A stretch of 64,000 nt of DNA from a virus, in the IMG/VR virus record IMGVR_UViG_3300010399_000004, positions 23,740 to 87,739 of that record, one strand, 5' to 3'. Positions 8,597 to 60,963 of this stretch are shown piece after piece. How positions within the stretch are numbered: the stretch's first letter is position 1; each line of letters starts with the position of its first letter. Made by a program: the position numbers and the translations under genes. The notes under the pieces are model-generated. The model ran no database searches. It saw nothing but the letters and a program-made list of their open reading frames with translations, and was not told where the DNA came from.

Positions 8597-10992
8597 ATCC
8601 TGCACACAGGCAGAAATTTGCTCTGCTTATCAAGAAGGCCAGGAAAAGTTTCCTGGCTTATTTGATGTTATTCAACAATCCGAAGACTTCTCAAATCAAG
8701 ATGGGGAAGTTGCACAAGTTTCTGGCTGATCTTGTGCAGGGGGTAGTTGATGGGACATATGGAGCCTATCAAGCAGTTTCAATCCCCCCGCAGCACGGTA
8801 AGGCTCTGCACGATGATACTTTGATTCCTACCCCGGACGGGTTTAAAAAAATTGCGGACCTTGAAGTAGGGGATCGGGTATTCACCCAGGATGGTTCTGT
8901 GACTTCTGTTTTATGCGTGAAACACTGGAAGCGCAGACCGATCTACAAACTGACAATGGATGACGGAACGTTTGTGAAGGCGGATGGCGAGCATTTGTGG
9001 TCAGTCCGTATGTGTCGAAAGCGGAAAACAACACACACGCTCTGGACCACTGAACGGCTTAGCAAAAGAACGTCCAGCCGCTCCCCCGCCCTTCCTGAGT
9101 CTGGAGCTTTGGTGTTGCCGGAAAAGCCTTTTGTGGTGGCTCCTTATGTGCTTGGCTGCTGGCTTGGGGATGGAAACTCTAATGGAAACTTATTCACGGC
9201 AACAGAGGAGGATCAAGAGCATTATGCTCAAAGGTTCTCTGCGATGGGATTTCCGGTAAGCAGAACAGCCTACGCGATGCGGTTTCGTTTGCAGGCTTCT
9301 TGGTATATTCGATGGCTGAAAGACTCTGGATTGCATGAAAACAAGCACATCCCAGAGAGATATATGAGGGGAAGCGCGGAGCAGAGGAGGGAACTGCTGA
9401 AAGGCCTAATTGACACTGACGGCTATGTTTCGTCTGATGGACAGGTTGAATTCTGCAATGTAAACTATCGCCTCGCCTGCGATGTTCGGCGATTAGTCCA
9501 TTCGCTTGGAATCAAGGCGGCCATGTCCGAAGGGCGGGCAACTATAAATGGAGTTGACTGTGGTCCAAAATACCGAATCTTATTTTATGCAGACAGAGTA
9601 GCCTCTCTTCCACGAAAAGTAGCCAGACTCCGCAATCCGCAGAAACGATGTCGTTACATAGAAAAAGTTGAACGATGCGGAACGGGCAATACTACCTGCA
9701 TCCAAGTAAATCATCCATCGGGTATGTTCCTTTGCGGGGAGGCTTGCATACCCACCCACAACAGCCTTATGCTGGCGGTTGAGACTGTTTCCTGGCTAAT
9801 GGGGCATTCTCCGGGAATCAGCATCGCTATCGCTGGACATAGGCATGATTTGATGACTGAGTTTTCTCAGCAGGTAAAAGCGAGGATAAGTAATCCTTTA
9901 TATGCTTTAGTGTTTCCTAAAGCGGGGGAGATTATTCGGGGTAGGGATAAAGCGGATTCGTGGATGCTTGGCAATAGGTCAACCTTGAGGGCAAAATCGG
10001 TAGGAAGTAAATTGACAGGGAACCGGGTGGACTGGCTTATTATTGACGATGCCCATGCAGGCCGGGCGGAAGCAGAAAGCGAGACTCAGCGAAATAGAGT
10101 GCATCAGTGGTATTTCGGAGATTGCGTTACTCGTTTGTCTCCGGGGGCTAAAGTATTCATCATTGGGACGCGTTGGCATCCAAAGGATTTGATAGGACAT
10201 TTAACTAGCAAGGAGTATGTTGATACGCTCAAAGCAGAAGGGCAGGAAGAGCGTATATTTGAAGTAACTAATCTCCCTGCCTTTGCGGGAGAAAATGATC
10301 CTTTAGGAAGAGAATCGGGGGAAGCGCTATTTCCGGAAGTTCGTAATGCTGCCTGGCTCATGGGGGTTAAAGCGTCTATCCCTTCTTACGAATGGGATTC
10401 TCAATACATGGGCAACCCCCGTTCTATTGCGGAGGGGCAGGCAGATATTAGCCGGCTTAGAAGAATTCCTATGGATCGTGTCCCTATCCATATTCCCAGA
10501 TTGCGGGGGTGGGACCTTGCTCTTACAGAGAAGAAAACATCGGACTATTCAGTAGGATCGCTTTGCGCATGGGATGCAGACAAAGAAGAGTTTTATATAC
10601 TTAACATGTTCCGGGTAAAACTGGCTTGGCCAAAGCTTGAGCCCCGTCTTCTTGCTTTATCTCTAAGGGATAAGCTGGAATGGAATTGTAACAAGATGGC
10701 TATGGAAGCCGTAAGTGGATTTGAAATTGGATTACAAAACATTCGCAAGGCTTTATCCGGTCAGGTAAAAGTGGTAAAAAGAAATCCAGGGGTCGGAGGG
10801 AAACTGATGCGGGCGCAGGGGTGGTTGAATGTTTTGGAAAAGGGCAGAATGTTTATGGTTGAAGGTCCCTGGAATAAGGATTTCTTAGATGAGCTTCTTG
10901 ATTTCCCTAACGGAAAAAATGATGATATTGAGGATTCGGTTAGTGTCGCATGGGAAGAGTTGACTTCCCCGCAGAAACTTCTATATGGTTAA
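8593..10992 (+). CDS. terL: Terminase large subunit, interrupted by an intein
   Basis: 799 aa precursor; the spliced protein would be 479 aa, normal for a TerL. The Walker A sequence IPPQHGK-S is split between Lys70 and Ser391 by the intein. After it come the Walker B strand VDWLIIDDAHAG and SAT motif IIGTRWHPKD, then the RNase H-like nuclease with RGWDLALTE, MAMEAVSG and a final DDIEDSVSVA. This is the packaging motor that cuts and pumps DNA into proheads. Splicing is required for ATPase activity. Confidence 0.92.
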   Translation: MNPAHRQKFALLIKKARKSFLAYLMLFNNPKTSQIKMGKLHKFLADLVQGVVDGTYGAYQAVSIPPQHGKALHDDTLIPTPDGFKKIADLEVGDRVFTQDGSVTSVLCVKHWKRRPIYKLTMDDGTFVKADGEHLWSVRMCRKRKTTHTLWTTERLSKRTSSRSPALPESGALVLPEKPFVVAPYVLGCWLGDGNSNGNLFTATEEDQEHYAQRFSAMGFPVSRTAYAMRFRLQASWYIRWLKDSGLHENKHIPERYMRGSAEQRRELLKGLIDTDGYVSSDGQVEFCNVNYRLACDVRRLVHSLGIKAAMSEGRATINGVDCGPKYRILFYADRVASLPRKVARLRNPQKRCRYIEKVERCGTGNTTCIQVNHPSGMFLCGEACIPTHNSLMLAVETVSWLMGHSPGISIAIAGHRHDLMTEFSQQVKARISNPLYALVFPKAGEIIRGRDKADSWMLGNRSTLRAKSVGSKLTGNRVDWLIIDDAHAGRAEAESETQRNRVHQWYFGDCVTRLSPGAKVFIIGTRWHPKDLIGHLTSKEYVDTLKAEGQEERIFEVTNLPAFAGENDPLGRESGEALFPEVRNAAWLMGVKASIPSYEWDSQYMGNPRSIAEGQADISRLRRIPMDRVPIHIPRLRGWDLALTEKKTSDYSVGSLCAWDADKEEFYILNMFRVKLAWPKLEPRLLALSLRDKLEWNCNKMAMEAVSGFEIGLQNIRKALSGQVKVVKRNPGVGGKLMRAQGWLNVLEKGRMFMVEGPWNKDFLDELLDFPNGKNDDIEDSVSVAWEELTSPQKLLYG
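8803..9762 (+). mobile_element. TerL intein with LAGLIDADG endonuclease
   Basis: 320 residues. Starts with Ala (ALHDDTLIPTPDG), so an Ala1-type intein rather than the common Cys1; block B is DGEHLWSV. Ends CIPTHN before the +1 Ser. Two LAGLIDADG helices, YVLGCWLGDGNSNG and LLKGLIDTDGYV, mark the homing endonuclease. Inserted inside the P-loop, a common intein site because it is conserved. Confidence 0.9.
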
Positions 10993-13295: not shown

Positions 13296-14039
13296 ATGAA
13301 ACCTTCTGTGCTTATAGCTTTCCCTTTCTGGAAGGATGCGATGAGCACGCATTTGACAGGGAGGGATTGGGTAATGGATTCTGGTGCATATTCCGCATTT
13401 ACATCCGACAAGCATATAGCTTTAGGTGATTATATATCTTGTATAAAACGATTGCAGGACACTGCACATGCTCCGCGTCATGTATTTGCTTTAGATGTGA
13501 TTGGGGATGAATATGTAAGCTATAGCAATGCAATTGCTATGCGAACCGCTGGAATTGAGGTGATTCCTACTTGGCACGCAGGAAGTAGCCTGGAAGCATT
13601 GCGGAGAATTGCTGATGAGTTTTCACGAATTGCTATCGGGGGGCTAGTAGGTCGGCGTCCGAATCGTCGTTTAGTAATGGGTAAGAAAGCTCGAATTTAC
13701 TGGGTTTCCAAAGCATTTGAAACTGTATGGCCCAAATGGATTCATGGCTTTGGGTTGAGCTTCGTTGATCTTTTGCAATCATTTCCGTTTGCATCTGTGG
13801 ATAGTCTTGGATGGAGATTTACTCCCGAAGCTTTCGGTATATGGAAAACATTTGGAGGTAAATTGCCACTAAGAAAAGTTTCCTCCGTAGGGGTTGACTG
13901 TGAGATAAAGTGGTATCTTGAATTTCAAGAAAAGTTAAAACAGCAATGGAAACGTGAGCATGAGTCTGTTCAAGAATCTAATTTTTCAATCAAGTTTGCA
14001 TGTTGTAATAAGAAAGAAATAGTGCAACTTGATATATGA
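13296..14039 (+). CDS. dpdA: DpdA-like TGT-family DNA transglycosylase, copy B
   Basis: 247 aa paralogue of copy A with the same ordered motifs: DWVMDSGAYSAF, VFALDVIGDE, GIEVIPTWHAG, RIAIGGLVGRR, KWIHGFGLSF and FASVDSLGW. The conserved catalytic Asp regions DSGA and LDVIG are intact in both copies. Shorter because it lacks the N-terminal extension. Lower GC than copy A, so divergence is not recent. ATGA overlap with queC. The pair could act as a heterodimer, or use different bases or DNA motifs. Confidence 0.85.
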   Translation: MKPSVLIAFPFWKDAMSTHLTGRDWVMDSGAYSAFTSDKHIALGDYISCIKRLQDTAHAPRHVFALDVIGDEYVSYSNAIAMRTAGIEVIPTWHAGSSLEALRRIADEFSRIAIGGLVGRRPNRRLVMGKKARIYWVSKAFETVWPKWIHGFGLSFVDLLQSFPFASVDSLGWRFTPEAFGIWKTFGGKLPLRKVSSVGVDCEIKWYLEFQEKLKQQWKREHESVQESNFSIKFACCNKKEIVQLDI

Positions 14040-14812
14040 AAACTCATGTTGTTCAATCAATCAGTGGAGGTATGGATTCAACCTGCCTCCTTTTGCGTCA
14101 TTTGGCACAGAATCGCAGTATCCATCTCTTGTCTTTCGATTATGGGCAGAAGCATAAACTTGAATTGGAAAGATTGGATAAGAATTTGGAGTATCTGAAA
14201 GCACAGGATTTGGGCCATACTCGAATTTCGGTCCCATTCGGAGGCATTGCGTCCTCTGCATTGACTACTGCTGAACAGGATGTTCCGGAAGGTTTCTATG
14301 CTCAGGATAATATGAAGCAAACTGTGGTGCCGAATCGCAATGCTATTTTTTCAGCCATTGCCTATGCATCTGCTCTTTCTCTGGCTAATGAATTGCATCA
14401 GGAAGTATTGCTATCTCTGGGGGTGCATAGTGGAGATCATGCAATTTATCCTGATTGCAGGAGGGAATTCTTTGAAGCGCTGCACGCCGCATTTGTTTTG
14501 GGTAACTGGAACGGTCAAGCCGTCATACTTGATCTTCCTTATTTGGATTGGGATAAAGTAGATATTTTGCGGCAGGCAGTCAAGGATTGTGAAACTTTAG
14601 GGATTGAGTTCGATACAGTGCTTCGTAACACCAATACTAGTTACGCCCCAGACGTTTCGGGGAAAGCCAGTGGTCGCACGGGAAGTGATGTGGAGCGTAT
14701 CCTCGCTTTCCATGTTATAGGCCGGCGGGACCCAGTTGAATATATAGATGGATGGGAGAAAGCCCTTGAGTATGCTTTGCAATCGCAGAAAGATTTCAAT
14801 ATGAAAGGATAA
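14036..14812 (+). CDS. queC: QueC-like preQ0 synthase lacking its zinc cysteines
   Basis: 258 aa. The N-type ATP-pyrophosphatase loop SGGMDSTCLL is intact, as are FDYGQKHKLE and VPNRNAIF. QueC converts CDG through the amide ADG to preQ0. The C-terminal zinc site, normally SCYxGG...ACGxCGTCVER, reads TSYAPDVSGKASGRTGSDVER here: all four Cys ligands are replaced while the surrounding frame is kept. The enzyme may be metal-free, or altered so that it stops at ADG. Part of the dpdA-queC-queD-queE-folE cluster. Confidence 0.85.
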   Translation: MKTHVVQSISGGMDSTCLLLRHLAQNRSIHLLSFDYGQKHKLELERLDKNLEYLKAQDLGHTRISVPFGGIASSALTTAEQDVPEGFYAQDNMKQTVVPNRNAIFSAIAYASALSLANELHQEVLLSLGVHSGDHAIYPDCRREFFEALHAAFVLGNWNGQAVILDLPYLDWDKVDILRQAVKDCETLGIEFDTVLRNTNTSYAPDVSGKASGRTGSDVERILAFHVIGRRDPVEYIDGWEKALEYALQSQKDFNMKG

Positions 14813-14818
14813 AGGGAT

Positions 14819-15259
14819 ATGGCCGTGCCTACCTTAGTATTGATTGGATGCTCAAGCAGGAAAGCAAAGGAAGCTTGCGCAGTCAGAGATTTCTATTTGG
14901 GAACACTATTCAAAGCTTCGGTTGAGTGGACAGAATCTTGTAAATTGAAATGGGGGGTTATTTCCACGAAATATGGATTTGTCTTACCCGATCAAATTAT
15001 TGCTCCTTATAATGAAACCTTTGCCTCTTTCGCCAAAGGATCAGTAGGATATAGGAAAATAACTGATGGATGGCGACTTTTGGTGCGGAGACAGCTATTG
15101 CCTTATAAGGGAAGAAGAATGCTAAGTATCCTTGGAAAAGAATACGAAAATATTGGACTTCCTCTTTTTAATCCATTTAAGTATTTATGGTTGGGGGCTA
15201 GAGTTAAATGGTTATGGGGTCATTTAGGTATGCTTCCTTCTACTATTATAAAACCATGA
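14819..15259 (+). CDS. DUF6884-like protein, 146 aa
   Basis: The N-terminus VLIGCSSRKAKEACAVRDFYLGTLFKAS resembles DUF6884 proteins (LVGCxxxK...ARDLYxGxLFxxx), whose GVISTKYGFVLPD segment also fits. Embedded between queC and queD with an ATGA overlap to queD, so a part in the deazaguanine pathway is plausible but unproven. Confidence 0.6.
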   Translation: MAVPTLVLIGCSSRKAKEACAVRDFYLGTLFKASVEWTESCKLKWGVISTKYGFVLPDQIIAPYNETFASFAKGSVGYRKITDGWRLLVRRQLLPYKGRRMLSILGKEYENIGLPLFNPFKYLWLGARVKWLWGHLGMLPSTIIKP

Positions 15260-15681
15260 TTTCCTGCACCAAACGATATATTGATCTTCCATTCGCACAT
15301 CGTCAGCCCCACCATAATGGGCATTGCGCTATGATACATGGACATTCATGGGGCATTGAATTTGAATTCACTGCGCAACGGTTGGATGAATGTGGATTTG
15401 TAGTTGACTTCGGAAGTCTAAAATGGCTCAAGGAATGGATTGATGCTATGTTCGATCATACTTTGGTGCTGAATGCAGACGATCCATATTTGAAAAGTTT
15501 TCAAATTGCTCTGGAAGGCACTGCGAATATCAAAGTCGTTCCGGATTGTTCCAGCGAAGGATTGGCCATATTTATATTTCAAACGGTTGCAGATTTACTT
15601 TGGAAAACAGAACAAGGCCGAGTATCCCTGTTGCGCGTAACCGTATTTGAGGACTCAAAGAACTCTGCCACATATAAATGA
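15256..15681 (+). CDS. queD: QueD 6-carboxytetrahydropterin synthase
   Basis: 141 aa from ATG 15256 (ATGA overlap). Zinc histidines in FAHRQPHHNGHCAMIHGHSW, with the catalytic Cys in GHC. FVVDFGSLK and FDHTLVLN are further family motifs, and TVFEDSKN supplies the late Glu. Converts dihydroneopterin triphosphate from FolE to CPH4. Palindrome copy 9 is carried in frame as YLKSFQIA. Confidence 0.92.
   Translation: MISCTKRYIDLPFAHRQPHHNGHCAMIHGHSWGIEFEFTAQRLDECGFVVDFGSLKWLKEWIDAMFDHTLVLNADDPYLKSFQIALEGTANIKVVPDCSSEGLAIFIFQTVADLLWKTEQGRVSLLRVTVFEDSKNSATYK
15489..15505 (+). repeat. Palindrome copy 9 (perfect, central G)
   Basis: Inside queD and translated as LKSFQ. Confidence 0.95.
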
Positions 15682-16376
15682 AACGACCATTTCAATTACC
15701 CATCCACGAGCGTTTCGCTGCCTTCCAGGGGGAGGGTTGCCATATGGGGTTATCGGCATTCTTTATTCGCACGTATGGCTGTCCGGTAAAATGTAAATTT
15801 TGCGATTCTGCGGGCACTTGGCATAAGGATTTTGCCCCAAAGAAATCCTTACTTGTCGATGTTCCCGATCTTGTAAAGGAAGCAAAAGAAGCAAACCCCG
15901 TGTTTGTAGTATTGACCGGGGGGGAGCCCTGCATTCATCGGGAAGGGGTTCAGGCGCTCTCAGAATCGCTTTCCATTGCAAAGATAGCTCTACATGTTGA
16001 AACGTGTGGAGCATTCCCACTGCCCCCTTCCTGGTTCGATTGGATTACCGTTTCACCGAAGAGGGATGCTTTGCCTAAAGACGAAATGTTGCTTGCGGCC
16101 AATGAGTTGAAAATTATAGTGGATAATGTTGGTGCTATTGAGGAATGGATGAGTTTTATAAATGGAACACTTCCTAAAGTTCCGGTGTGGTTGCACCCAG
16201 AATGGTCCATGCGCAATGATCCATCTATTTTGAATTACATATCAGAATCTGTAAAATTGAGAGGGGGGAGATTCCGGGCCGGCTATCAGCTTCACAAACT
16301 TTATAACGTGGACAAGTTGGACAAGCGCTCTGCACCTTTAGTTCCGCTGGGTGGAAATCCCAAAAAAGGATTTTGA
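15678..16376 (+). CDS. queE: QueE 7-carboxy-7-deazaguanine synthase
   Basis: 232 aa radical SAM enzyme. CPVKCKFCDSAGTWH holds the CxxxCxxC cluster ligands; FAAFQGEGCHMG and VLTGGEPCIH are QueE hallmarks; WITVSPKRD and HPEWS follow as expected. Turns CPH4 into CDG. Overlaps queD by 4 nt; folE follows at 2 nt. Confidence 0.93.
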   Translation: MKRPFQLPIHERFAAFQGEGCHMGLSAFFIRTYGCPVKCKFCDSAGTWHKDFAPKKSLLVDVPDLVKEAKEANPVFVVLTGGEPCIHREGVQALSESLSIAKIALHVETCGAFPLPPSWFDWITVSPKRDALPKDEMLLAANELKIIVDNVGAIEEWMSFINGTLPKVPVWLHPEWSMRNDPSILNYISESVKLRGGRFRAGYQLHKLYNVDKLDKRSAPLVPLGGNPKKGF

Positions 16377-16377
16377 T

Positions 16378-16956
16378 ATGAATATGAAGGAGATAACCAT
16401 TGATGGTTTGAAAGCTCTGATTAGTTTGTCTGGGGATGATCCTACCCGCACAGGAATGGAAGAAACTCCAAACCGCTTTGTTAAAGCGTTCCTTGAGATG
16501 TGCAGCGGATATAAGGAGAATCCTTTAGATCATTTGCAGAAAGAATTTGATCTAAGTGATACTGGCGACGGCCATACGCCCTATGGGGGCATGATTATTT
16601 CTAAAGACATTCCCTTTGTCAGTCTTTGTGAGCATCATATGCTGCCGTTTCATGGAACAATTCATATGGGTTACATCCCCGGAGAATCAGGCAAAGTAGT
16701 GGGACTCTCAAAGCTGGCTCGTATGGCCGATGGTTATGCCAGGAGATTTCAAGTACAGGAAAGATTGACTCAGCAGATAGGTGACGGACTACAAAGTTTG
16801 AATCCACAGGGAGCTATCGTAGTGGTTCAAGCCCAGCACGCATGCCAATGTTTTCGTGGGGTTCGCAAATCGGGGAGCATGATCACTTCTGCGGTATATG
16901 GAGCTTTCAAAGAGCAACCTGCGAGGGAGGAATTCCTTACTTTGCTGCGTTTGTAG
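16378..16956 (+). CDS. folE: GTP cyclohydrolase I
   Basis: 192 aa from ATG 16378; a second ATG lies 6 nt later. Zinc ligands in SLCEHHMLPF and QHACQCFRGVR; GLSKLARMADGYARRFQVQE is the family signature. Makes dihydroneopterin triphosphate from GTP, the first step to preQ0. Last gene of the modification cluster, followed by a palindrome and the capsid operon promoter. Confidence 0.95.
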   Translation: MNMKEITIDGLKALISLSGDDPTRTGMEETPNRFVKAFLEMCSGYKENPLDHLQKEFDLSDTGDGHTPYGGMIISKDIPFVSLCEHHMLPFHGTIHMGYIPGESGKVVGLSKLARMADGYARRFQVQERLTQQIGDGLQSLNPQGAIVVVQAQHACQCFRGVRKSGSMITSAVYGAFKEQPAREEFLTLLRL

Positions 16957-40960: not shown

Positions 40961-43441
40961 ATGCAAATCAAAAACACCGCCGGCTTCAATGCCGCAATCC
41001 GCACACTCACGAACGCCGCCGTAGGCGTCATAATCGTTCAAACCAGGGAGCCCCACCGCACCCAGCAGGTTCTCCGGGAATTCACTTTCTCTGTCCGCAA
41101 AGCATTCCGCGTATGGGACTGCGTTTATGGATGGAGGCGATTTCCGGATTCCCCTGCCGGAAAAATCGAGCAGGACAAAACTCTGGACGCCTATGCGGCC
41201 CTCCGCAAGATCGCTGACTTGGACGGGGACGGACAGGCGCAATGGAATGATTGCATCTGCGTGATGCACTATCCGCACTGGGCACTGCCGAAGAATTTGG
41301 CGTTCATGCAGCTTCTCAAACATTACGTTCGACTGTTTACGGAATCCCAGCAGCGGCTGATTCTTTTGGTTCCAGAAGGATTTGAGCCTCCCGTCGAAAT
41401 CGCCAACGACGTTACCCTGGTGGACTTCCCCCTTCCTTCCCCGGAGGAACTTGGAGAGAGTTTGGGAAACGTTATTACTTCCTCCTTGGCGGAAGGGAGC
41501 AAAGGGGAGGTATATGGTGAAACAGAGCGGACCATTCTTGTCGGGAATGCCAGCGGGATGACGCAACTGGAAGCGGAGAATGCTTTCAGTCAGGCTATCG
41601 TCGCCAACAAAAAAACCTGGCCCCAAACCCCCTTCCAGGATTTCAATGATGTGCTCTTGGAGTGTAAGACTAACGTAGTCAAGCGCTCCAACGTTCTTGA
41701 GATGATGGACCCAGTGAATATTGATGAAGTTGGGGGGCTTGATTTATTCAAGTCATACATTAGGGTAAGGCATAAAGCGTTCACGCTAGAAGCCAAAGCT
41801 TTTGGGGTTGATATTCCTAACGGAGTTTTACTGGCCGGGCCGCCGGGATGTCTTTCGGCGGATACGCCGATGTTATATCTCCGGGGAATTCGTAATTCTG
41901 GACGCCATATACGTCTTGATGATTTGTTTGAAAAATTTAATGGGATAGCTTCAAACAATACTTGGGATCGTAGGATTCCAACCTATCTTCATTCTTTTGA
42001 TGCAAATACTGGCAAGGTATTTTATAACCGAGTTGTATCTGTAATTAACTCGGGGGTTAAAACAGTTATCCTATTAACTACGAAAGACGGCAGGCAACTT
42101 AAGCTCACTAATGATCATCCAGTTCTCACTACGGATGGATTTGTTGCTGCGGAACAACTTCAACCTGGAACAGAGATAATTGTTCGGGGGAGTATGAAAG
42201 CATCTCCTTCTGCTATGCGGTATGGCAGAAAACCTCGTGTAGTTATTGAGGGTTTGAAATACTATGCTTCTGGATGGAAAAAAATAGTAGAACACAATGG
42301 AATCATATACGAGTATCAACGGCAAAATCGCGCTCGGTTGGTAGTAGAAGCTCATATGAATAATCTTAGCTACGATGATTATATTTGGAGACTCAAAACC
42401 GATATGGAAGCCATCTGCCTTAAATACCTACCATCGGAAATGGTAGTTCATCACATAGACGAAAACCCGATGAATGATGAATTATCAAATCTTCAAATTA
42501 TGTTCAAACCAGACCATGATCGGTTACATATGGATGAGGAAAACTTCAACATAGAATATACTACGCTTGACTATGTTACTAATGTTATTTCTTATGGCGA
42601 GGTTCAAACCTATGATATTCAAATGGAATCTCCCGGAAACAACTTCGCCACTGCGGACGGGCTAATAGTCCACAATACCGGTAAGAGTTTAGTAGCTAAA
42701 GCTGTGGCAGGTGTCCTCCGCCTTCCGCTTATCAAGCTGGATATAGGCAAAGTATTTGCTGGTATCGTCGGTGAATCCGAATCCCGTATTCGCTCCGCAC
42801 TGAAACAAATTGAAGCTATGGAGCCGGCCGTTGTATTGATAGACGAGATTGACAAAGGGTTAGGGGGAGCGCATCAGAACGGGGGAGACTCTGGAGTGTC
42901 CAAGCGGGTTCTCGGAACCATCTTGACGCACATGCAGGAGTCAACCTCCAGAATTTATTGGATATTCACCGCTAACCGTGTAGAGGGACTTCCCCCCGAA
43001 CTTGTGAGGAAGGGGCGATTGGATGATGTGTTTTGTGTCTCCCTCCCCAACATTGTTGAGCGAATGGAAGTGCTCAAGATTCATCTTCGGAAACGCAAGC
43101 AGGACCCCGCAAAGATTCCAGACCTGAACAAAGCGGCGGTGGAATCGAAAGGCTATGTCTCCGCAGAAATTGAATCCGCAGTAGCGCAGGCTGTGCTTGC
43201 CGCTTTCAATGATAACATTCCCGTCACCGGTAATTTGATCGTGGCTCAACTGAAAAACATGAAGCCGCTGAGTGAAGCGTTCAAGGCTGATTTCGAGCGC
43301 ATGATGGAATGGGCACAGGATAATGCCCGAATGACATCCACCCCGCAGGAGGAACCCGCAGCGCTGCGGAACGCGGGCATCCCCCTTCCCGGCAAGCCCT
43401 CCCGCCGCGGAATGAACATGGACAAATCCAACAACAACTAA
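40961..43441 (+). CDS. Ycf46-like AAA ATPase, interrupted by an intein
   Basis: 826 aa precursor, 550 aa after splicing. The N-terminal half (VIIVQTREPHRTQQVLREF, VRKAFRVWDCVYGWRR) is the Ycf46-type regulatory region. The AAA core begins DEVGGLDLFKSYIRV; Walker A is GPPG-TGKS split by the intein, Walker B VVLIDEIDKGL, sensor FTANRVEGLPPELVRKGR with the arginine finger. Followed by DUF1257 and DUF2997 genes as in the cyanobacterial Ycf46 set. GC-rich codons suggest strong expression. Cellular role of the family is unclear. Confidence 0.8.
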   Translation: MQIKNTAGFNAAIRTLTNAAVGVIIVQTREPHRTQQVLREFTFSVRKAFRVWDCVYGWRRFPDSPAGKIEQDKTLDAYAALRKIADLDGDGQAQWNDCICVMHYPHWALPKNLAFMQLLKHYVRLFTESQQRLILLVPEGFEPPVEIANDVTLVDFPLPSPEELGESLGNVITSSLAEGSKGEVYGETERTILVGNASGMTQLEAENAFSQAIVANKKTWPQTPFQDFNDVLLECKTNVVKRSNVLEMMDPVNIDEVGGLDLFKSYIRVRHKAFTLEAKAFGVDIPNGVLLAGPPGCLSADTPMLYLRGIRNSGRHIRLDDLFEKFNGIASNNTWDRRIPTYLHSFDANTGKVFYNRVVSVINSGVKTVILLTTKDGRQLKLTNDHPVLTTDGFVAAEQLQPGTEIIVRGSMKASPSAMRYGRKPRVVIEGLKYYASGWKKIVEHNGIIYEYQRQNRARLVVEAHMNNLSYDDYIWRLKTDMEAICLKYLPSEMVVHHIDENPMNDELSNLQIMFKPDHDRLHMDEENFNIEYTTLDYVTNVISYGEVQTYDIQMESPGNNFATADGLIVHNTGKSLVAKAVAGVLRLPLIKLDIGKVFAGIVGESESRIRSALKQIEAMEPAVVLIDEIDKGLGGAHQNGGDSGVSKRVLGTILTHMQESTSRIYWIFTANRVEGLPPELVRKGRLDDVFCVSLPNIVERMEVLKIHLRKRKQDPAKIPDLNKAAVESKGYVSAEIESAVAQAVLAAFNDNIPVTGNLIVAQLKNMKPLSEAFKADFERMMEWAQDNARMTSTPQEEPAALRNAGIPLPGKPSRRGMNMDKSNNN
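41849..42676 (+). mobile_element. AAA ATPase intein with HNH endonuclease
   Basis: 276 residues from Cys1 (CLSADTPMLYLRG) to VHN before +1 Thr, inside the P-loop. Block B is TNDHPVLTTDG. An HNH motif (VVHHIDENPMNDELSNLQIM...HDRLH) makes up the endonuclease. The DNA is visibly AT-richer than the flanking gene, so it arrived recently. Confidence 0.9.
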
Positions 43442-45099: not shown

Positions 45100-45116
45100 T
45101 TTGAAAAGTTTTCAAA
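45100..45116 (+). repeat. Palindrome copy 21 (perfect, central G)
   Basis: Immediately upstream (6 nt) of the first tRNA-like element of the RNA cluster. Confidence 0.95.
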
Positions 45117-45196: not shown

Positions 45197-45550
45197 TTTC
45201 TGGAATGTTGGCCTAGAAGCAGCCATCATCTAAGGAGTGACCCGTTGGGGTAACTATGTAAAACACCGAGTCGAGCGCACATTGGCTATTTATTAGCTTT
45301 AGATCGGTAGCGTGTCTGAAAAGATCACGTTGTAGTAAACAACCCACTAAGAAGCGCCTTGTCAAGTTGCGAGTGTCCGACGGCTGCGGCACTCAAGGTC
45401 TTTAGCGTAACAGCACACCAGAATTCGCCTTCCCGTTCTGTCCTTGCGCAGGGTAATCCTTGAGGATATCTCGGCAGCATCGAAACCTGTTAAGGTATGC
45501 CTGACAACGGTCAACTCGGCTTAGGAAATGCAGAACGGGGGGGGGGACAA
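45197..45550 (+). ncRNA. Structured RNA mimicking the 23S rRNA GTPase-associated centre
   Basis: 45201-45236 aligns with E. coli 23S 1055-1088: GGAATGTTGGC then TAGAAGCAGCCATCAT (16 identical). 45404-45418 (AGCGTAACAGCACAC) aligns with 1090-1104, including the loop of helix 44. Helix 42 is rebuilt by TTCTGG (45198-45203) with CCAGAA (45418-45423), using base pairs that differ from E. coli but still pair. The three-way junction is thus complete, with a ~165-nt hairpin-rich domain inserted before helix 44. A second domain follows, closed by CCCGTTCTG (45432) and CAGAACGGG (45531). Lies between tRNA-like elements; no protein gene overlaps. Confidence 0.85.
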
Positions 45551-45552
45551 TT

Positions 45553-45625
45553 GGTTGGGTAGTGTAATTAACACACCGCGGCTTAGTCCCGGAGATTGCT
45601 GGTTTAAGTCCAGCCCTGACCGCCA
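45553..45625 (+). tRNA. tRNA with encoded CCA; anticodon uncertain (TTA or TAG)
   Basis: Acceptor GGTTGGG/CCTGACC (7 bp with G-T pairs), D stem GTGT/ACAC with a 5-nt loop, T arm GCTGG-TTTAAGT-CCAGC, discriminator G and CCA at 45623-45625. The anticodon arm (576-592 in the 45 kb block) has one C-C mismatch and loop GCTTAGT. Taken at standard positions the anticodon is TTA with C33; a one-base shift gives TAG with U33. Confidence 0.65.
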
Positions 45626-45690: not shown

Positions 45691-45770
45691 GATATGAGGC
45701 GGGCACGGGGGATGGGTATCCCCGCCGATAGTGATATAGGAGTAAAGGGGTTCGAGTCCCCGCTAGTCTC
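45691..45770 (+). tRNA. tRNA-like element, cloverleaf unresolved
   Basis: A T-arm consensus GGGG-TTCGAGT-CCCC (45747-45761) and a hairpin GGGGAT-GGGT-ATCCCC (45708-45723) that could be an anticodon arm with GGG. I could not place a convincing acceptor stem or CCA, and the variable region would be about 22 nt. A degenerate or class II tRNA is possible. Confidence 0.3.
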
Positions 45771-45774
45771 TCAT

Positions 45775-45849
45775 TACAGGGAAGTGTAACGGATGCACAA
45801 AAGGCCCATAACCTTTAAGTAGCGAGTTCAATTCTCGCCCCTGTAACCA
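45775..45849 (+). tRNA. tRNA-Met (CAT), CCA encoded
   Basis: Complete cloverleaf: acceptor TACAGGG/CCCTGTA (7 bp, U1-A72), D stem GTGT/GCAC with loop AACGGAT, anticodon stem AAAGG/CCTTT with loop CCCATAA (anticodon CAT at 45807-45809), T arm GCGAG-TTCAATT-CTCGC, discriminator A, CCA. Position 33 is C instead of the near-universal U. Confidence 0.85.
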
Positions 45850-45852
45850 ATT

Positions 45853-45940
45853 TCGCAGTCTGCCGGGATTCAGGCAATGCGGTCCATAACCGCTTCCCGA
45901 TAGTTGGTTCCGTTACGCGGGACGCGCAGACTGCGAGCCA
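45853..45940 (+). tRNA. tRNA-like element with CAT loop but no normal T arm
   Basis: Acceptor TCGCAGT/ACTGCGA, extendable to 9-10 bp, ends GCCA. D stem TGCC/GGCA with a GG-containing loop. GCGG-TCCATAA-CCGC gives an anticodon arm with CAT and again C33. The T arm is missing: instead TCCCG and CGGGA enclose 18 nt. Possibly a decayed or specialised Met tRNA. Confidence 0.5.
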
Positions 45941-45944
45941 ATGC

Positions 45945-46115
45945 CCTGGGACGAAATAGGCCCAGGGGAAAACCAGGGGGAAATGCATGGTGCAAATCCG
46001 GCCGGAGGAGAAATCCTCCGTCGTCTAATCAGATAGGACACCCCCGCTAATTTGTTGGTAACGAGGAACAGTCCACCGCGGTTTGGTTACTCAGGTGGAC
46101 ACCACAAAGGCGGGG
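45945..46115 (+). promoter_or_regulatory. Cobalamin-riboswitch-like element
   Basis: The hallmark order AGGGGGAAA...GGTGCAAATCCGGC...GGACACCCCCGCTAAT resembles the AdoCbl riboswitch core (AGGGAA..GGTGxAAxxCC..CCCCGCxAC). A GAAA-capped hairpin CGGAGGA/TCCTCCG separates the two halves. Later, CAGGTGGACACC resembles the CAGgAgACC element, GTCCACC/GGTGGAC form a helix, and GTAAC (46058) can pair with GTTAC (46086) as a loop contact. CCCCGC at 46042 can also pair with GCGGGG of the terminator, allowing a switch. The regulated gene is unclear. Confidence 0.45.
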
Positions 46116-46156
46116 CTTCGTAGCCTGTTTGCGCGAAGTCCCGCCCCTTATTTTTT
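46109..46156 (+). terminator. Strong intrinsic terminator, possible switch partner
   Basis: GGCGGGGCTTCG (46109-46120) pairs with CGAAGTCCCGCC (46134-46145, one G-U), then a T run 46151-46156. Its 5' arm can alternatively pair with CCCCGC upstream. Confidence 0.85.
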
Positions 46157-46159
46157 AAT

Positions 46160-46242
46160 GGCCGGTTAGAAAGCCGGGGCGATTGCAACGTCTTCGGACA
46201 ACTCATGGATGGTTTGGGGTTCGACTCCCTGACCGGCCACCA
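46160..46242 (+). tRNA. tRNA-like element with encoded CCA, anticodon unresolved
   Basis: Acceptor GGCCGGT/ACCGGCC (7 bp perfect), discriminator A, CCA at 46240-46242; T arm TGGGG-TTCGACT-CCCTG; T8 present. The 47 nt between do not form a normal D or anticodon arm; they contain a GTC-TTCG-GAC tetraloop hairpin. 83 nt in all. Confidence 0.5.
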
Positions 46243-56354: not shown

Positions 56355-57104
56355 ATGAAACTTTTTTGTGGAGATTGTTTGCAGCAGATGAATCATTTGG
56401 CTCCGAGATCGGTTGATCTTGTATTGAGCGATCTTCCTTACGGGACTACACAGTGTAAATGGGATTCTATAATTCCATTGATTCCACTATGGAAGGGTAT
56501 TTTGCGCATACTAAAGCCTGCGGGGGCGGTCGTATTGACTTCGGCGCAGCCCTTTACTTCTATATTAGTGTGTAGCAATCTTAAAATGTTTCGATATGAT
56601 TGTGTATGGGTAAAGGATAGGGCCACCGGGCATCTCAATGCTGGCAGAAGTCCAATGAGAAGGCATGAAAGCATTCTTGTCTTTGCACATAGAAGAGAGA
56701 AGATAACATTCAATCCTCAGCTTATTGCGGGGGCTGCTTCTACGGCTATAGGAGCATTTCGGGGGTATGGCGGGCATAAAAATAAGGCATCGCAGATTTA
56801 TGGTGTAGCTGGCGGACATAAGAGCAAGCAGTGGAATGCAAAGATAAATCCACACTCGGTGTTATATTTCAATTCTGTCCCTTCCAGACCTATACGACTT
56901 CATCCGACACAGAAACCAGTTGATTTGGCTCGCTATCTGATTAGGACTTACAGTAATAGTGGGGATGTTGTTTTGGATGTTGCTATGGGATCAGGTTCAT
57001 TCGGAGAAGCCGCTCTTCTTGAAGACAGAGGGTTTATTGGGATAGAAAAAGATCAGGCTATATTCGATATAGCTTGCAATCGTTTGAAAACTTTTCAAAA
57101 CTGA
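56355..57104 (+). CDS. DNA N-methyltransferase, beta-type order, 249 aa
   Basis: ATG 56355. Motif IV is SDLPYG (a DPPY variant) at residues 25-30; after a target region, HPTQKPVDLARYLIR and motif I VLDVAMGSGSFGEAAL follow, the beta class order of N6-adenine or N4-cytosine enzymes. C-terminus RLKTFQN is encoded by palindrome copy 29. Probably protects phage DNA; no cognate nuclease gene adjoins it. Confidence 0.85.
   Translation: MKLFCGDCLQQMNHLAPRSVDLVLSDLPYGTTQCKWDSIIPLIPLWKGILRILKPAGAVVLTSAQPFTSILVCSNLKMFRYDCVWVKDRATGHLNAGRSPMRRHESILVFAHRREKITFNPQLIAGAASTAIGAFRGYGGHKNKASQIYGVAGGHKSKQWNAKINPHSVLYFNSVPSRPIRLHPTQKPVDLARYLIRTYSNSGDVVLDVAMGSGSFGEAALLEDRGFIGIEKDQAIFDIACNRLKTFQN
57083..57099 (+). 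repeat. Palindrome copy 29 (perfect, central C)
   Basis: Overlaps the 3' end of the methyltransferase gene, 25 nt before the -35 of the next promoter. Confidence 0.95.
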
Positions 57105-57160: not shown

Positions 57161-57298
57161 ATGAAGACCAAACTTAAGAAAGAACCATTCATCAGTGACC
57201 CTGTTTATGCATTTTTGGCAAGTAAGTGTCCTGCGTTTGCAAGGGACCTTAAACGGGTGCTTGCAAACCAAAAAAAGCGGACTGAAAAAGCAGACTAA
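57161..57298 (+). CDS. Small basic protein, 45 aa
   Basis: MKTKLKKEPFISDPVYAFL... ending KKRTEKAD. Very basic, single helix. Its TAA overlaps the polymerase ATG (TAATG). Possibly translationally couples the polymerase. Unknown family. Confidence 0.5.
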   Translation: MKTKLKKEPFISDPVYAFLASKCPAFARDLKRVLANQKKRTEKAD

Positions 57299-60200
57299 TG
57301 AGCGTTATATATTCAACGGGTAATCTTAGGAATCCAAAGGTTGTAGTTGTCTGCGATATTCCAACGGTCAAGGCTTATGCCGCGGGCCATGCAATGTCAG
57401 TGGCCTGCATGGATAAGTTCCGGGAGGAAGCGGAGCGGAGTGGATTCGTGAAGGATGACTTTGCATTCGTTATTCCGGCCCCGCCGATGTCAGAGCACGA
57501 TGCAACTTCGGAAGCACGGACTAATGCATTCCTGGATGGCCACCGGCCGCTATTTATGGCTACGCTGAATGGGCTCCTTTCTAAAGGTCCGGCCCTGTTG
57601 ATGTATTGCGGGAAGCACGCGGGGAGGCAGGTAATGGGCAAGACAATCCAGATAACAAAAAAGCGGGGGCAGATTCATAATGAAGAAGGATTCAACATCC
57701 CCGTCCTTCCTATGTTATCGCCGGGGAATGTTCTGCGCCGTCCCGAGGTTGCAGAAACCTTTGAGACGGATTTCCGGCTGGCGGGAGCATTTAAGGAAGC
57801 GGGATGGAGTCTCCGGGGCTACAGCAACAGCAGATTGCGGGGGGAGTATAAATGGTGCCTTGATTTAGAGGAAGAGATTGATTTAGATAATCCTCCCGAA
57901 GCTATAGCTTTGGATGTTGAAACAAAGGGATTGAAGTGGTATGATCCTTCCTTCCGGGTTTTGACTATACAACTTTCCTGGGCTCACGGACAGGGAATCA
58001 TTCTGCCGATAGATATCAATTATTTCAACGATGATTCGTTGCGGGGGGTTTCTACTATCGGTATGCCAAAGATAGGCAGGAGGGACCGGGAACGAATGCT
58101 AAAACAAGTGCGCAGATTATTGGCAGATAAAAGAGTAAAGGTATGCGGCGCGAACCTCAAGTTTGATCTTCATGCATTGAAAAACCTGGATATTGAAGTT
58201 GCTTGTTGGCAGCATGATACTGTTCAATTGGCTTTCGTCTGTGACGATAACATGCAGCAGAAAGCTTTGTCCGAATGCGTTAGGCGATGGATACCCAGCA
58301 TGGCCGGATATAGTGATAATTTTGATAGGGAAATTGACAAGTCCATGATGGATAAAGTTCCTCATGACAAGATGCTCCCATACGCAGCCGGCGATACGGA
58401 CGTAGCGCGGAGGTTGACTTTGATACTTGTAAAGCTGGCAAAAGAGGACCCGCAGAATTATCGCTGCTATACAAGGATTCAGATGCCGGCCCTTCGACAA
58501 TTCTTTAGAATAGAGCGGGAGGGATTATATACCGATCAACCTGATTTGCTGACGCTTGGGAATGTAATTGGAGAACAGATAGAGGAAATCAACAATGCTC
58601 TATTGAATACCGGAAGGTTGAATGAGGATGGAACGGTTCTATATGCTCCTGTGTCAGCCAAAGTAAAAAGGAGGCAATTGGAATTGACCGAAAATAAACT
58701 TGATCCGGAGGATGCTTTGAGTTTTACGCGGGCGGATTTCATTATTGATGTTTTATTCTCCCCAAAGCGGGAAGGGGGTCGGGGGCACGTTCCGGTTGTA
58801 TTCACAGACACGACCGCGGCCCTTGATCCATCGGAACGGGTCCCTTCCACTTCTGCCAAACACCATCTTATCTATTTTGATGAAGACCCATTTGTAGGAG
58901 ACTTAACGGATTTGATCCGTCTCCGTAAGCTGCAATCTACTTATGTAGGATTGCCGGAAGGATATGAATATCGCCCGGTTAAGTTATTGAAGAATGGAAA
59001 GTTTCAGAAAGCTGCGCAGGATATTATAACGGCTAAGGAATTGAATGTAACCTATCAGGAAGCTCCGGGGGGAGAACCGGAAGCGGAGCACATGGCTTTC
59101 GATGTAAAGGAAAACGTGGCTTTCGTTCTTGATCTTCATGGAAGACCGCTATGGAGAGATTACCGCCCCCCTTCTGGATTCTGGCAGCATTTGGCCCCGG
59201 ATTCAAAGATTCACCCTGGATTCTATCTGGACAGAACTGTCACTGGAAGATCCGCTAGTAAAGATCCTAACGGACAGAACATACCAAAGCGCGGTAGGAC
59301 TCCTAGACTTAAAATCTTGGTATCATCATATAGGAAAATATTCAAAGCAAGGCCGGGGTGGATATTGCTGGAAGTGGATTTAAGTCAGGCGGAGCTTAGA
59401 CTAGTTGCATGGATGGCCAGAGAAAGAACTATGCTCAAGGTTTATAAGGATGGGGGGGATATTCATGCTACAACTGCTGCCAATGCATTAAAGATTACTA
59501 TGGCACAGTTCAATGCCTTATCTAAGGATGATCGCTTTATGTATCGCTATCACTCTAAGGCTAGGAACTTTGGTCTATGCATAGCTGAGGGGCAGAGTGT
59601 TCTTACTCAAGTAGGAGAAATACCTATTGAAAAAGTTAAGGATTGGCATTTATTATGGGATGGACAAGAATGGATCAAACACGAAGGAGTCATATTCAAA
59701 GGTTATAAGAAGGTCATTACCTGGGACGGAGTTACTGCTACCCCAGACCATAAAGTCTGGGCAGAGGAAGGGAGGATGCTTTCCCTGCGGGAAGCTTCAT
59801 CCGAAGTATGTCCCCTTGCAAGAACGGCGACGGCAGATGGCATCCCTGTCCGTTGGAACGCTGACTTTAAGACTGAGAACTTTGAAAAGGGAAGGAAGCT
59901 ATTGGGTAATAAATGGAAAATGCAAAGCTTGTGGAAACGTATGGGTGTTGTCTTGCAACAATCTATATTCAGGAAAAACAAAAAATTGTCGTTGTCAGAG
60001 GCACAGGAAATATCCACAGGACGGGAGAGCGGAAACTCTCGGGCAAAGATACGATTCTATGATTCAGCGTTGCAGACGGGATACGCACGTATCGTCTCAC
60101 AATTACAAAGGGAGAGGGATAAAAGTATTGTTCGAGAGCAGAGAGGATTTCATATGGTGGGCATTAAAGAAGTTCCCGGAGACAGATTTCAAGGGGTTGG

Positions 60201-60963
60201 ACTTCGACAGGGAGAACAACGATGGTCATTATTCCAAGGAGAATCTCAGGCTAGTTACTCGGAAGGAAAATCTAGCGAATACACGACCAAGGAAGAAGCG
60301 GGAGCGGTGCGCGTTTACGATATAATTAACGCTGGCCCCAGAAGGCGATTTACATGTCAGGGTAGGTTAGTATCCAATTGTTACGGAATGTGGTGGAAAT
60401 CCTATCGCACATATGCAAGGACTGACTACGGTATTCATATATCAGAATCTCAGGCTAAACAAGAATGGGATGATTTCTTTGAGCTTTACAGCGATCTTCC
60501 CCGGTGGCACACAAAGATGAAAAACATTGCTAAACAGCATGGATTTGTGCGGGCATTGCACGGGGCTTTGCGCCGCCTTCCCGCGATTAATTCTAACGAT
60601 GAAAAGGTGCAGAGGGATGCGGAACGTATGGCAATCAACAGCCCCATCCAGCGCTTTGCTTCGGACCTTGGATTGATGGGAATGAGCATATTTGCAGAGC
60701 ACTGCCCCTGGGAGATTATGCACCCGCTGGGATTCATTCACGACGCCACGGTAATCGAAGCGCGGGAGGAGTATGCAGACGAAGCGATGGGGGCGATGAA
60801 ATGGATTTTGGAAAACCTCCCCCTTCTGGAGTGGTTTGACCTTGACCCCCCGCTTCCGATTCTGGCGGATGTATCCTGTGGCCCATCCCTCGGGGAGTTG
60901 GAGGAACGTCCTGATATTCAGGCAGTTCGGCCGGAGTGGCTGCCGGAAAATTGGAAGGTTTGA
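57298..60963 (+). CDS. polA: DNA polymerase I with UDG-like domain, interrupted by an intein
   Basis: 1221 aa precursor, 954 aa after splicing. Residues 1-190 resemble family IV/V uracil-DNA glycosylases (MYCGKHAGRQVMGKTIQITKKRG, LPMLSPGNVLRRPE). The 3'-5' exonuclease begins IALDVETKGLKWYD. The A-family polymerase follows: LLEVDLSQAELR (motif A), RARNFGL-C-YGMWW with the intein in motif B, and FIHDATVIEA (motif C, HD). Replicates the phage genome. TGA stop lies in palindrome copy 30. Confidence 0.9.
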   Translation: MSVIYSTGNLRNPKVVVVCDIPTVKAYAAGHAMSVACMDKFREEAERSGFVKDDFAFVIPAPPMSEHDATSEARTNAFLDGHRPLFMATLNGLLSKGPALLMYCGKHAGRQVMGKTIQITKKRGQIHNEEGFNIPVLPMLSPGNVLRRPEVAETFETDFRLAGAFKEAGWSLRGYSNSRLRGEYKWCLDLEEEIDLDNPPEAIALDVETKGLKWYDPSFRVLTIQLSWAHGQGIILPIDINYFNDDSLRGVSTIGMPKIGRRDRERMLKQVRRLLADKRVKVCGANLKFDLHALKNLDIEVACWQHDTVQLAFVCDDNMQQKALSECVRRWIPSMAGYSDNFDREIDKSMMDKVPHDKMLPYAAGDTDVARRLTLILVKLAKEDPQNYRCYTRIQMPALRQFFRIEREGLYTDQPDLLTLGNVIGEQIEEINNALLNTGRLNEDGTVLYAPVSAKVKRRQLELTENKLDPEDALSFTRADFIIDVLFSPKREGGRGHVPVVFTDTTAALDPSERVPSTSAKHHLIYFDEDPFVGDLTDLIRLRKLQSTYVGLPEGYEYRPVKLLKNGKFQKAAQDIITAKELNVTYQEAPGGEPEAEHMAFDVKENVAFVLDLHGRPLWRDYRPPSGFWQHLAPDSKIHPGFYLDRTVTGRSASKDPNGQNIPKRGRTPRLKILVSSYRKIFKARPGWILLEVDLSQAELRLVAWMARERTMLKVYKDGGDIHATTAANALKITMAQFNALSKDDRFMYRYHSKARNFGLCIAEGQSVLTQVGEIPIEKVKDWHLLWDGQEWIKHEGVIFKGYKKVITWDGVTATPDHKVWAEEGRMLSLREASSEVCPLARTATADGIPVRWNADFKTENFEKGRKLLGNKWKMQSLWKRMGVVLQQSIFRKNKKLSLSEAQEISTGRESGNSRAKIRFYDSALQTGYARIVSQLQRERDKSIVREQRGFHMVGIKEVPGDRFQGVGLRQGEQRWSLFQGESQASYSEGKSSEYTTKEEAGAVRVYDIINAGPRRRFTCQGRLVSNCYGMWWKSYRTYARTDYGIHISESQAKQEWDDFFELYSDLPRWHTKMKNIAKQHGFVRALHGALRRLPAINSNDEKVQRDAERMAINSPIQRFASDLGLMGMSIFAEHCPWEIMHPLGFIHDATVIEAREEYADEAMGAMKWILENLPLLEWFDLDPPLPILADVSCGPSLGELEERPDIQAVRPEWLPENWKV
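59578..60378 (+). mobile_element. PolA intein with an out-of-frame endonuclease
   Basis: 267 residues in the polymerase frame. Block A CIAEGQSVLTQVGEIPIEKV, block B GVTATPDHKVW, then a featureless middle, block F VRVYDIINAGPRRRFTCQ and end LVSN before +1 Cys. The penultimate His of block G is replaced by Ser. Interrupts motif B of the active site. The central 490 nt encode an HNH protein in the +1 frame. Confidence 0.85.
59837..60325 (+). CDS. HNH homing endonuclease nested in +1 frame of the intein, 162 aa
   Basis: Begins MASLSVGTLT. Zinc ribbon GKCKACGNVW and CRCQ, TLGQRYDSMIQRC, NYKGRGIKV and DFDRENNDGHYSKENLRLV, then TRKENLANTRPRKK: the full order of the HNH/AP2-type free-standing homing endonucleases. 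The frame is +1 to polA and shares no codons with it. Open ORF extends upstream to 59627; ATG 59837 is the likely start. Dual coding is maintained since the polA frame stays open. Confidence 0.8.
   Translation: MASLSVGTLTLRLRTLKREGSYWVINGKCKACGNVWVLSCNNLYSGKTKNCRCQRHRKYPQDGRAETLGQRYDSMIQRCRRDTHVSSHNYKGRGIKVLFESREDFIWWALKKFPETDFKGLDFDRENNDGHYSKENLRLVTRKENLANTRPRKKRERCAFTI

What the first reader, a model, noticed from the sequence alone, without database searches (positions are those of the whole stretch)
45197..45423. A phage RNA that rebuilds the 23S rRNA GTPase-associated centre
Seen: 45201-45236 matches E. coli 23S 1055-1088 with a 16-nt identical run (TAGAAGCAGCCATCAT), and 45404-45418 matches 1090-1104, including the loop GTAA with the equivalents of A1095 and A1096; A1067 is also kept. 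Helix 42 is formed by TTCTGG and CCAGAA, base pairs that differ from E. coli yet still pair, which argues for selected structure and not a random rRNA scrap. Known: this centre binds L11, EF-G, EF-Tu, IF2, RelA and thiostrepton. Inference: the RNA is a decoy or tuner that titrates L11, RelA or a translation factor or toxin, or a part built into ribosomes. I know of no described phage RNA like this.
Basis: partly seen in the sequence, partly recalled or inferred. Interest (0 to 1): 0.97.

Follow-up and report, generated by a model that had tools for sequence, protein, structure and literature searches.

The report
Phage RNA copying a ribosome domain
Many unrelated bacterial viruses carry, among their tRNA genes, a separate RNA gene that rebuilds the spot on the bacterial ribosome where protein L11 and the translation factors dock, probably to hijack or retune the host's protein factory.

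Summary
Window 45198-45423 encodes helices 42-43-44 of 23S rRNA, the GTPase-associated centre (GAC), as a stand-alone RNA with a 162-nt arm inserted between 23S positions 1090 and 1091. It is not an rRNA scrap or a chimera. The same RNA occurs in over 100 other phage contigs and in isolated phages of Aeromonas, Pseudomonas, Xanthomonas, Vibrio, Cronobacter, Pectobacterium, Serratia and Erwinia, where it is not annotated as an RNA. Across 83 distinct members every variable helix covaries, including the GAC tertiary pair 1082-1086, which is fixed as U-A in the bacterial 23S sampled. A covariance model built from phage members only picks out the 23S GAC in 92 of 299 bacterial genomes searched. 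No Rfam 15 family covers it. It lies in phage tRNA clusters; all 623 tRNA/tmRNA calls on its loci share its strand.

Function is inferred. The nucleotides that build the L11-binding fold are invariant, while the thiostrepton/factor tip (A1067, G1068, A1070, A1096) is relaxed. None of 30 carriers encodes L11. Best guess: a trans-acting decoy for host L11, made with phage tRNAs, that changes stalk-base or RelA signalling. The structure and family are near certain; the L11 role is about 45% likely; no expression data were seen.

The parts
45198..45203 (+). Helix 42 equivalent, 5' strand (TTCTGG); the closing helix of the stand-alone RNA
   Evidence: Pairs with 45418-45423. In the family this helix varies freely and covaries (helix 1).
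45204..45204 (+). Extra base (A or G in 82 of 83 members) between the equivalents of 23S 1056 and 1057, absent from 23S
   Evidence: Column 14 of A1; comparison with 23S.
45205..45229 (+). Helix 43 and its loop, equivalent to 23S 1057-1081; A1067 = 45215
   Evidence: Profile match E = 4e-9; position-by-position comparison.
45230..45238 (+). 1082-1090 equivalent: tertiary pair C1082-G1086, G1087, A1088, U1090
   Evidence: Pair 1082-1086 covaries UA 34, CG 33, AU 10 in the family.
45239..45400 (+). Variable inserted arm (162 nt here, 32-421 nt in relatives), opened and closed by a covarying helix (GACC/GGTC), placed between 23S 1090 and 1091
   Evidence: (helix 5).
45401..45404 (+). Invariant UUU linker and one purine before helix 44
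   Evidence: Columns 63-66 of A1.
45405..45417 (+). Helix 44 hairpin, 23S 1091-1103 equivalent; A1095 = 45409, A1096 = 45410; A1101 pairs with U1090
45418..45423 (+). Helix 42 equivalent, 3' strand (CCAGAA)
45553..45622 (+). tRNA gene downstream, same strand
   Evidence: Rfam RF00005, 40.2 bits.
45775..45846 (+). tRNA gene downstream, same strand (probably CAU anticodon, read by eye)
   Evidence: Rfam RF00005, 51.4 bits.
45100..45116 (+). Copy of the phage-wide palindrome TTTGAAAAGTTTTCAAA just upstream of the RNA cluster; a possible control site
   Evidence: 32 copies in the window against 1.3 expected.

Best explanation
45198-45423 is a phage gene for a small structural RNA that folds like the GTPase-associated centre of 23S rRNA (helices 42, 43, 44), closed by its own terminal helix, with an extra arm grafted into helix 44. 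It is transcribed with the phage's tRNA genes. Acting in trans, it most likely binds the host ribosomal protein L11 (uL11), which binds the isolated 58-nt GAC. By holding L11, or by competing with the ribosome's own GAC for L11 and stalk-base partners, it shifts host translation during infection; the likeliest benefit is weaker RelA/(p)ppGpp signalling or altered elongation. The inserted arm would carry a second, phage-specific activity or a spacer. Shown: homology to the GAC, conserved fold, phage distribution, genomic setting. Inferred: expression, L11 binding, the effect on translation.
For: Homology: a covariance model from phage members only hits the 23S GAC in 52 of 150 and 40 of 149 bacterial genomes, almost all at E 1e-11 to 1e-7, full length with the insert skipped; a profile built without the window aligns end to end with Salmonella 23S, E = 5e-13. 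Selection on structure: 24 pairs, 91% of cells paired against 69% shuffled, 489 double changes against 167, slid controls 0.08-0.16 against 0.55. Tertiary fold kept: 1059, 1060, 1063, 1079, 1084, 1085, 1087, 1088, 1091-1095, 1098-1100 and 1102-1104 invariant; pair 1082-1086 fixed U-A in 59 bacterial 23S but covarying in phages; 1090/1101 changed together to U-A. Tip relaxed: A1067 in 67/83 phage RNAs against 59/59 in 23S; also G1068, A1070, A1096, which points to a ligand of the fold rather than of the tip. Isolated GAC RNA binds L11 (PMC10161774). Carriers encode no L11 of their own: 0/30, controls 14/14. Setting: 623/623 tRNA/tmRNA calls on the same strand; 45 of 119 elements within 100 nt of one.
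Against: No expression or binding data. A1095, also a factor and thiostrepton contact, is invariant. In this window the energy of the predicted fold is no better than shuffles (z = -0.76), so the structure rests on comparison only. The large arm, which a simple L11 sponge would not need, is unexplained. Ribosomes greatly outnumber any plausible decoy unless the RNA is abundant or acts on free L11. The 23S comparison sample was taken from the best matches to the phage model, so it is biased towards the consensus.
Confidence: 0.45

Rival explanations
1. Decoy for a translational GTPase, RelA-bound tRNA, or another ligand of the GAC tip (EF-G, EF-Tu-tRNA, IF2, thiopeptides), not for L11 itself.
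For: A1095 and the h44 loop GUA are invariant. EF-G has been reported to bind an isolated thiostrepton-domain RNA (title cited in PMC5829649), and A1067 stacks on the A/R tRNA elbow (PMC5829649).
Against: A1067 is G or C in 16 of 83 members, and G1068, A1070 and A1096 also vary, while they are fixed in the 23S sampled. No sarcin-ricin-loop mimic is found on the same loci; the one exact hit is the contaminant 23S in L134.
Confidence: 0.15
2. Antidote or decoy against a host defence enzyme or toxin that attacks or modifies the GAC of 23S rRNA, in parallel to phage tRNAs that replace tRNAs cut by host nucleases.
For: Setting in tRNA clusters, some with phage tmRNA. An RNA ligase/kinase gene lies near the element on related loci (L006, L011, L044, L148).
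Against: No host enzyme cutting the GAC is known to me. The RNA-ligase neighbour is not general. The relaxed loop argues against a sequence-specific nuclease bait.
Confidence: 0.15
3. A ribosome part in trans: the RNA docks into 50S subunits or their precursors and replaces or shadows the host h42-h44.
For: Complete h43-h44 fold with the L11-side nucleotides kept.
Against: Host h42-h44 is covalently part of 23S. The closing helix has no conserved rRNA sequence beyond GG/CC, so nothing matches the rest of 23S. The inserted arm may clash.
Confidence: 0.1
4. A structural or processing element of the phage tRNA transcript, or a large RNA assembly like GOLLD or ROOL, with the GAC fold used as a building block.
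For: GOLLD and ROOL are also phage RNAs encoded near tRNA islands (PMC12286853). The arm is large and diverse (32-421 nt).
Against: Some members have an arm of only 32-36 nt. Some lie between protein genes, thousands of bases from the nearest tRNA. A building block would not need the identity of the L11-side nucleotides.
Confidence: 0.1
5. rRNA scrap, pseudogene or assembly chimera.
For: Clear 23S homology; some 'phage' database records (for example L134) really are contaminating 23S.
Against: 107 relatives with the same insert, strong covariation, complete isolated phage genomes with the element between tightly packed genes, and no other 23S sequence at the locus.
Confidence: 0.01

Closest known systems
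GTPase-associated centre (h42-h44, 'thiostrepton loop', 58-nt L11-binding domain) of bacterial 23S rRNA
   Same: Same helices, same invariant nucleotides, same tertiary pair 1082-1086; homologous by covariance model.
   Different: Separate phage gene; own closing helix; extra base at 1056/1057; U1090-A1101; inserted arm of 32-421 nt between 1090 and 1091; relaxed A1067, G1068, A1070, A1096.
GOLLD and ROOL RNAs
   Same: Phage or prophage non-coding RNAs encoded near tRNA islands, function unknown (PMC12286853).
   Different: Those are 600-800+ nt RNAs that form nanocages; Rfam models of known families do not match this element.
Phage T4 stable RNAs C and D (species 1 and 2)
   Same: Small stable RNAs in a phage tRNA cluster.
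   Different: They lack the GAC core; rnaC ends in a tRNA-like T arm, by eye; the family model does not hit L131.
Ribosomal-protein leader RNAs (such as the L10 leader), and OLE RNA with its S21 pocket
   Same: RNAs that imitate an rRNA site to bind a ribosomal protein (leaders: from general knowledge; OLE: PMC12286853).
   Different: Leaders are cis-acting and sit before the ribosomal-protein gene; this RNA is free-standing, lies in phages, and no L11 gene is present.

Membership tests
23S rRNA GTPase-associated centre fold | h42-h43-h44 secondary structure | tested here: met
   91% of pair cells form across 83 members; 17 of 24 pairs covary.
23S rRNA GTPase-associated centre fold | Tertiary core: 1082-1086 pair, U1060/A1088, A1084-A1085, 1092-1099 with C1072 | tested here: met
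   1082-1086 covaries; the others are invariant or at least 98% conserved.
23S rRNA GTPase-associated centre fold | A1067 and A1095 tips | tested here: inconclusive
   A1095 in 83/83; A1067 in 67/83; both kept in this window.
23S rRNA GTPase-associated centre fold | Binds L11 and thiostrepton | not testable with these tools
   Needs binding assays.
23S rRNA (as a gene) | Continuous with the rest of domain II | tested here: not met
   No other 23S sequence at the locus; Rfam finds no LSU match; flanks are phage genes and tRNAs.
GOLLD / ROOL | Match to the Rfam covariance model | tested here: not met
   No match in the window or in 17 relatives.
T4 rnaC / rnaD | Shared core sequence | tested here: not met
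   No GAC core in L131.
L10 leader and other r-protein leaders | Rfam leader model match; upstream of the r-protein gene | tested here: not met
   No leader model; no L11 gene in 30 carriers.
tRNA / tmRNA | Match to RF00005 or RF00023 | tested here: not met
   The element itself is not matched, although neighbours are.

The most novel reading that the evidence does not exclude
Tailed phages of many bacterial groups share an undescribed class of trans-acting RNA: a 23S rRNA domain lifted out of the ribosome and turned into a phage gene, used to take L11 or stalk-base partners away from host ribosomes and so to disarm the stringent response or reprogram elongation during infection.
Probability: 0.35. 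Interest if true: 0.96.

Novelty: categorically new. Interest (0 to 1): 0.92.

Why it matters
Phages are known to carry tRNAs, tmRNA and some ribosomal proteins, but I found no description of one carrying a piece of ribosomal RNA as a gene of its own; the search covered Rfam 15 and an open-access paper library only. If expressed, it is a natural in-trans version of the 58-nt GAC that biochemists have studied for decades, it points to L11 or the stalk base as a target of phage takeover, and it may give a handle on how phages deal with (p)ppGpp. The 1082-1086 covariation is also independent evolutionary evidence for a tertiary contact that hardly varies in 23S.

Tried and rejected
Rfam 15 at gathering and relaxed thresholds found no family for the element. 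blastn of the whole locus against phages gave nothing, because only the two short cores are conserved. The neighbouring DUF1257 protein as bait found no relatives. T4 rnaC/rnaD were checked and rejected as relatives. Paenibacillus phage Pd_22F (L134) holds real 23S, and short Listeria, Staphylococcus, Salmonella and Escherichia records were left out as likely 23S contamination, several being annotated so. Minimum-energy folding of the window element is not significant (z = -0.76). A sarcin-ricin-loop mimic to complete the factor site was not found. A phage-encoded L11 partner was not found; an L12-like domain was found only in UNO-G1W1, with a weak sub-cut-off hit in one contig. RNA-ligase neighbours looked promising but are limited to one group of related loci. 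blastn against E. coli genomes at the default cut-off was too strict for a 44-nt query. Enrichment near tRNAs over random positions on the same loci is modest (38% against 20% within 100 nt), because many of the loci are themselves tRNA clusters. Paper searches found no prior description; subscription journals and preprints were largely outside the library.

Full report
WHAT IS THERE. The window holds TTCTGG-A-ATGTTGGCCTAGAAGCAGCCATCATCTAAGGAGT at 45198-45238 and TTTAGCGTAACAGCACACCAGAA at 45401-45423. Leaving out one extra A (45204), 31 of 34 bases equal Salmonella 23S 1055-1088, and 13 of 15 equal 1090-1104. A profile of bacterial 23S GACs puts the 5' half at E = 4e-9, with nothing else in 64 kb above noise. 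The 3' half is the top hit but is not significant on its own (E = 0.8).

IT IS A FAMILY. An exact pattern for the 5' core found nine IMG/VR contigs, and all proved to be the same kind of element, not 23S genes. Isolated phages carry it too: Aeromonas 4_4572; Pseudomonas pf16, Astolliot, Milchi and UNO-G1W1; Xanthomonas XacN1, XaC1 and XbC2; Vibrio 2.275.O; Cronobacter GAP32; Pectobacterium CBB; Serratia BF; Erwinia Kaldavass and pEa_SNUABM phages. None annotates it as an RNA, and in most it lies in an unannotated gap between genes; in Milchi, Kaldavass and UNO-G1W1 small hypothetical ORFs are called over part of it. In bacterial genome collections a stricter 3' pattern gives only 16 loci among about 85,000 species, at least 12 of them complete elements; the two contigs examined are phage by gene content. 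It is therefore a phage trait, rare in bacterial chromosomes.

STRUCTURE. 83 distinct members (window included, insert excised) align without gaps. Of 24 proposed pairs, 17 show changes on both sides. 91.1% of cells pair (69.0% in shuffles), there are 489 double changes (167 in shuffles), and the covariation score is 0.552 (0.133 in shuffles, 0.08-0.16 in slid controls). The outer helix varies freely. The base of h43 covaries (pair 1058-1080: UA, GC, AU, CG). The GAC tertiary pair 1082-1086 is UA 34, CG 33, AU 10. The helix that opens and closes the inserted arm covaries in all five pairs. In the 96 members with standard spacing the arm runs from 32 to 421 nt. Fifteen of 111 members depart from that spacing; several of these carry a second insertion near 1078. 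Two arm subtypes recur: CACCCC...GGTAAGG in 15, and GCRAAATG...GTGATGTG in 8.

HOMOLOGY TO 23S. A covariance model made from phage members only (R1) scores every 23S fragment tested at E 1e-9 to 2e-11, skipping the insert (alignment printed for one). In whole bacterial genomes it finds essentially only short, insert-free matches at rRNA-operon-like copy numbers, in 52 of 150 and 40 of 149 genomes of two phyla; genomes without a hit were not examined further and may lack an assembled rRNA operon. A profile built without the window sequence aligns end to end with Salmonella 23S at E = 5e-13. So the phage RNA is the GAC plus an arm between 1090 and 1091, plus one base.

WHAT IS KEPT AND WHAT IS RELAXED. 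Against 59 bacterial 23S sequences (19 distinct; taken from the best matches to the phage model, so biased towards its consensus), invariant in both sets are 1059, 1060, 1063, 1079, 1084, 1085, 1087, 1088, 1091-1095, 1098-1100 and 1102-1104. Phage RNAs are relaxed at A1067 (67/83; 59/59 in 23S; p = 2e-4), G1068, A1070 and A1096. Positions 1090 and 1101 are U and A in all but one phage RNA, where 23S has A or U against U. The fold that L11 recognises is held; the tip touched by factors, tRNA elbow and thiostrepton is looser, although A1095 is fixed. A1067's contact with the A/R tRNA elbow and its role in thiostrepton resistance are from PMC5829649. That the isolated 58-nt GAC folds and binds L11 is from PMC10161774.

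SETTING. In the window the element is followed by two tRNA genes at 45553 and 45775 inside about 1.2 kb of non-coding sequence, near DUF1257 and DUF2997 genes. Over 119 elements (a few from near-identical contigs), 79 loci have at least one ARAGORN call; 45 elements lie within 100 nt of one, often 2-14 nt away; all 623 calls are on the element's strand; five loci also carry tmRNA calls. Long same-strand gene blocks are common in phages, so strand agreement supports co-transcription without proving it. In jumbo phages such as GAP32, CBB and BF it fills a roughly 300-400-nt gap between packed genes.

MECHANISM. Shown: conserved fold, homology, phage distribution, tRNA-cluster setting. Inferred: expression and L11 binding. 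Carriers lack their own L11 (0 of 30; the same search finds it in 14 of 14 control genomes), so the natural partner is the host's. A decoy or sink for L11 explains why the L11-side fold is constant and the tip is not. The downstream benefit I rank first is weaker RelA activation or altered elongation during infection; this is a proposal, not a result. Rivals are a decoy for GTPases or tRNA at the tip, an antidote to a host enzyme that attacks the GAC, a ribosome part in trans, and a structural RNA of the tRNA transcript. Nothing here separates them decisively.

NOVELTY. Rfam 15 has no model for it, and ten full-text searches of an open-access library found no description. Work in subscription journals or preprints could have been missed. 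Nearest in setting are GOLLD and ROOL (PMC12286853); nearest in logic are ribosomal-protein leader RNAs and OLE.

Noticed in passing
window, 32 sites, for example 553-569, 45100-45116, 57083-57099: The palindrome TTTGAAAANTTTTCAAA occurs 32 times (most without mismatch) against 1.3 expected by chance, many of them near gene ends; it looks like a phage-wide control site.
   Followed up: partly
window 8593-10992, 40961-43441, 57298-60963: Intein or homing-endonuclease signatures in the large terminase and in an AAA ATPase; the DNA polymerase A gene is also interrupted mid-protein, seen by eye.
   Followed up: partly
window 14036-16956: Queuosine-precursor gene cluster (QueC, PTPS/QueD-like, radical SAM/QueE-like, GTP cyclohydrolase I), preceded by two related proteins without a Pfam match; suggests 7-deazaguanine modification of phage DNA or tRNA.
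   Followed up: partly
window 45696-45770 and 46159-46239: Two tRNA-like stretches with clear T arms but poor bodies (weak tRNA-Sec scores); ARAGORN calls no tRNA in the window, although Rfam calls two.
   Followed up: no
window 45850-46160: Further non-coding sequence with strong inverted repeats (11-bp perfect arms 45853-45863 and 45926-45936); possibly another structured RNA.
   Followed up: no
L006, L011, L044, L148: An RNA ligase/polynucleotide kinase gene (phrog_8238) lies near the GAC RNA in a group of related loci; XacN1 (L138) has a 2'-5' RNA ligase just upstream of it.
   Followed up: partly
Pseudomonas phage UNO-G1W1, 96300-96383 (L201): A phage ORF with part of a ribosomal L12-type domain (E = 7e-10) in a genome that also carries the GAC RNA.
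   Followed up: no
L024, L042, L059, L060, L082, L084, L096, L106, L113: Some members have a second inserted hairpin in helix 43 near 23S position 1078.
   Followed up: partly
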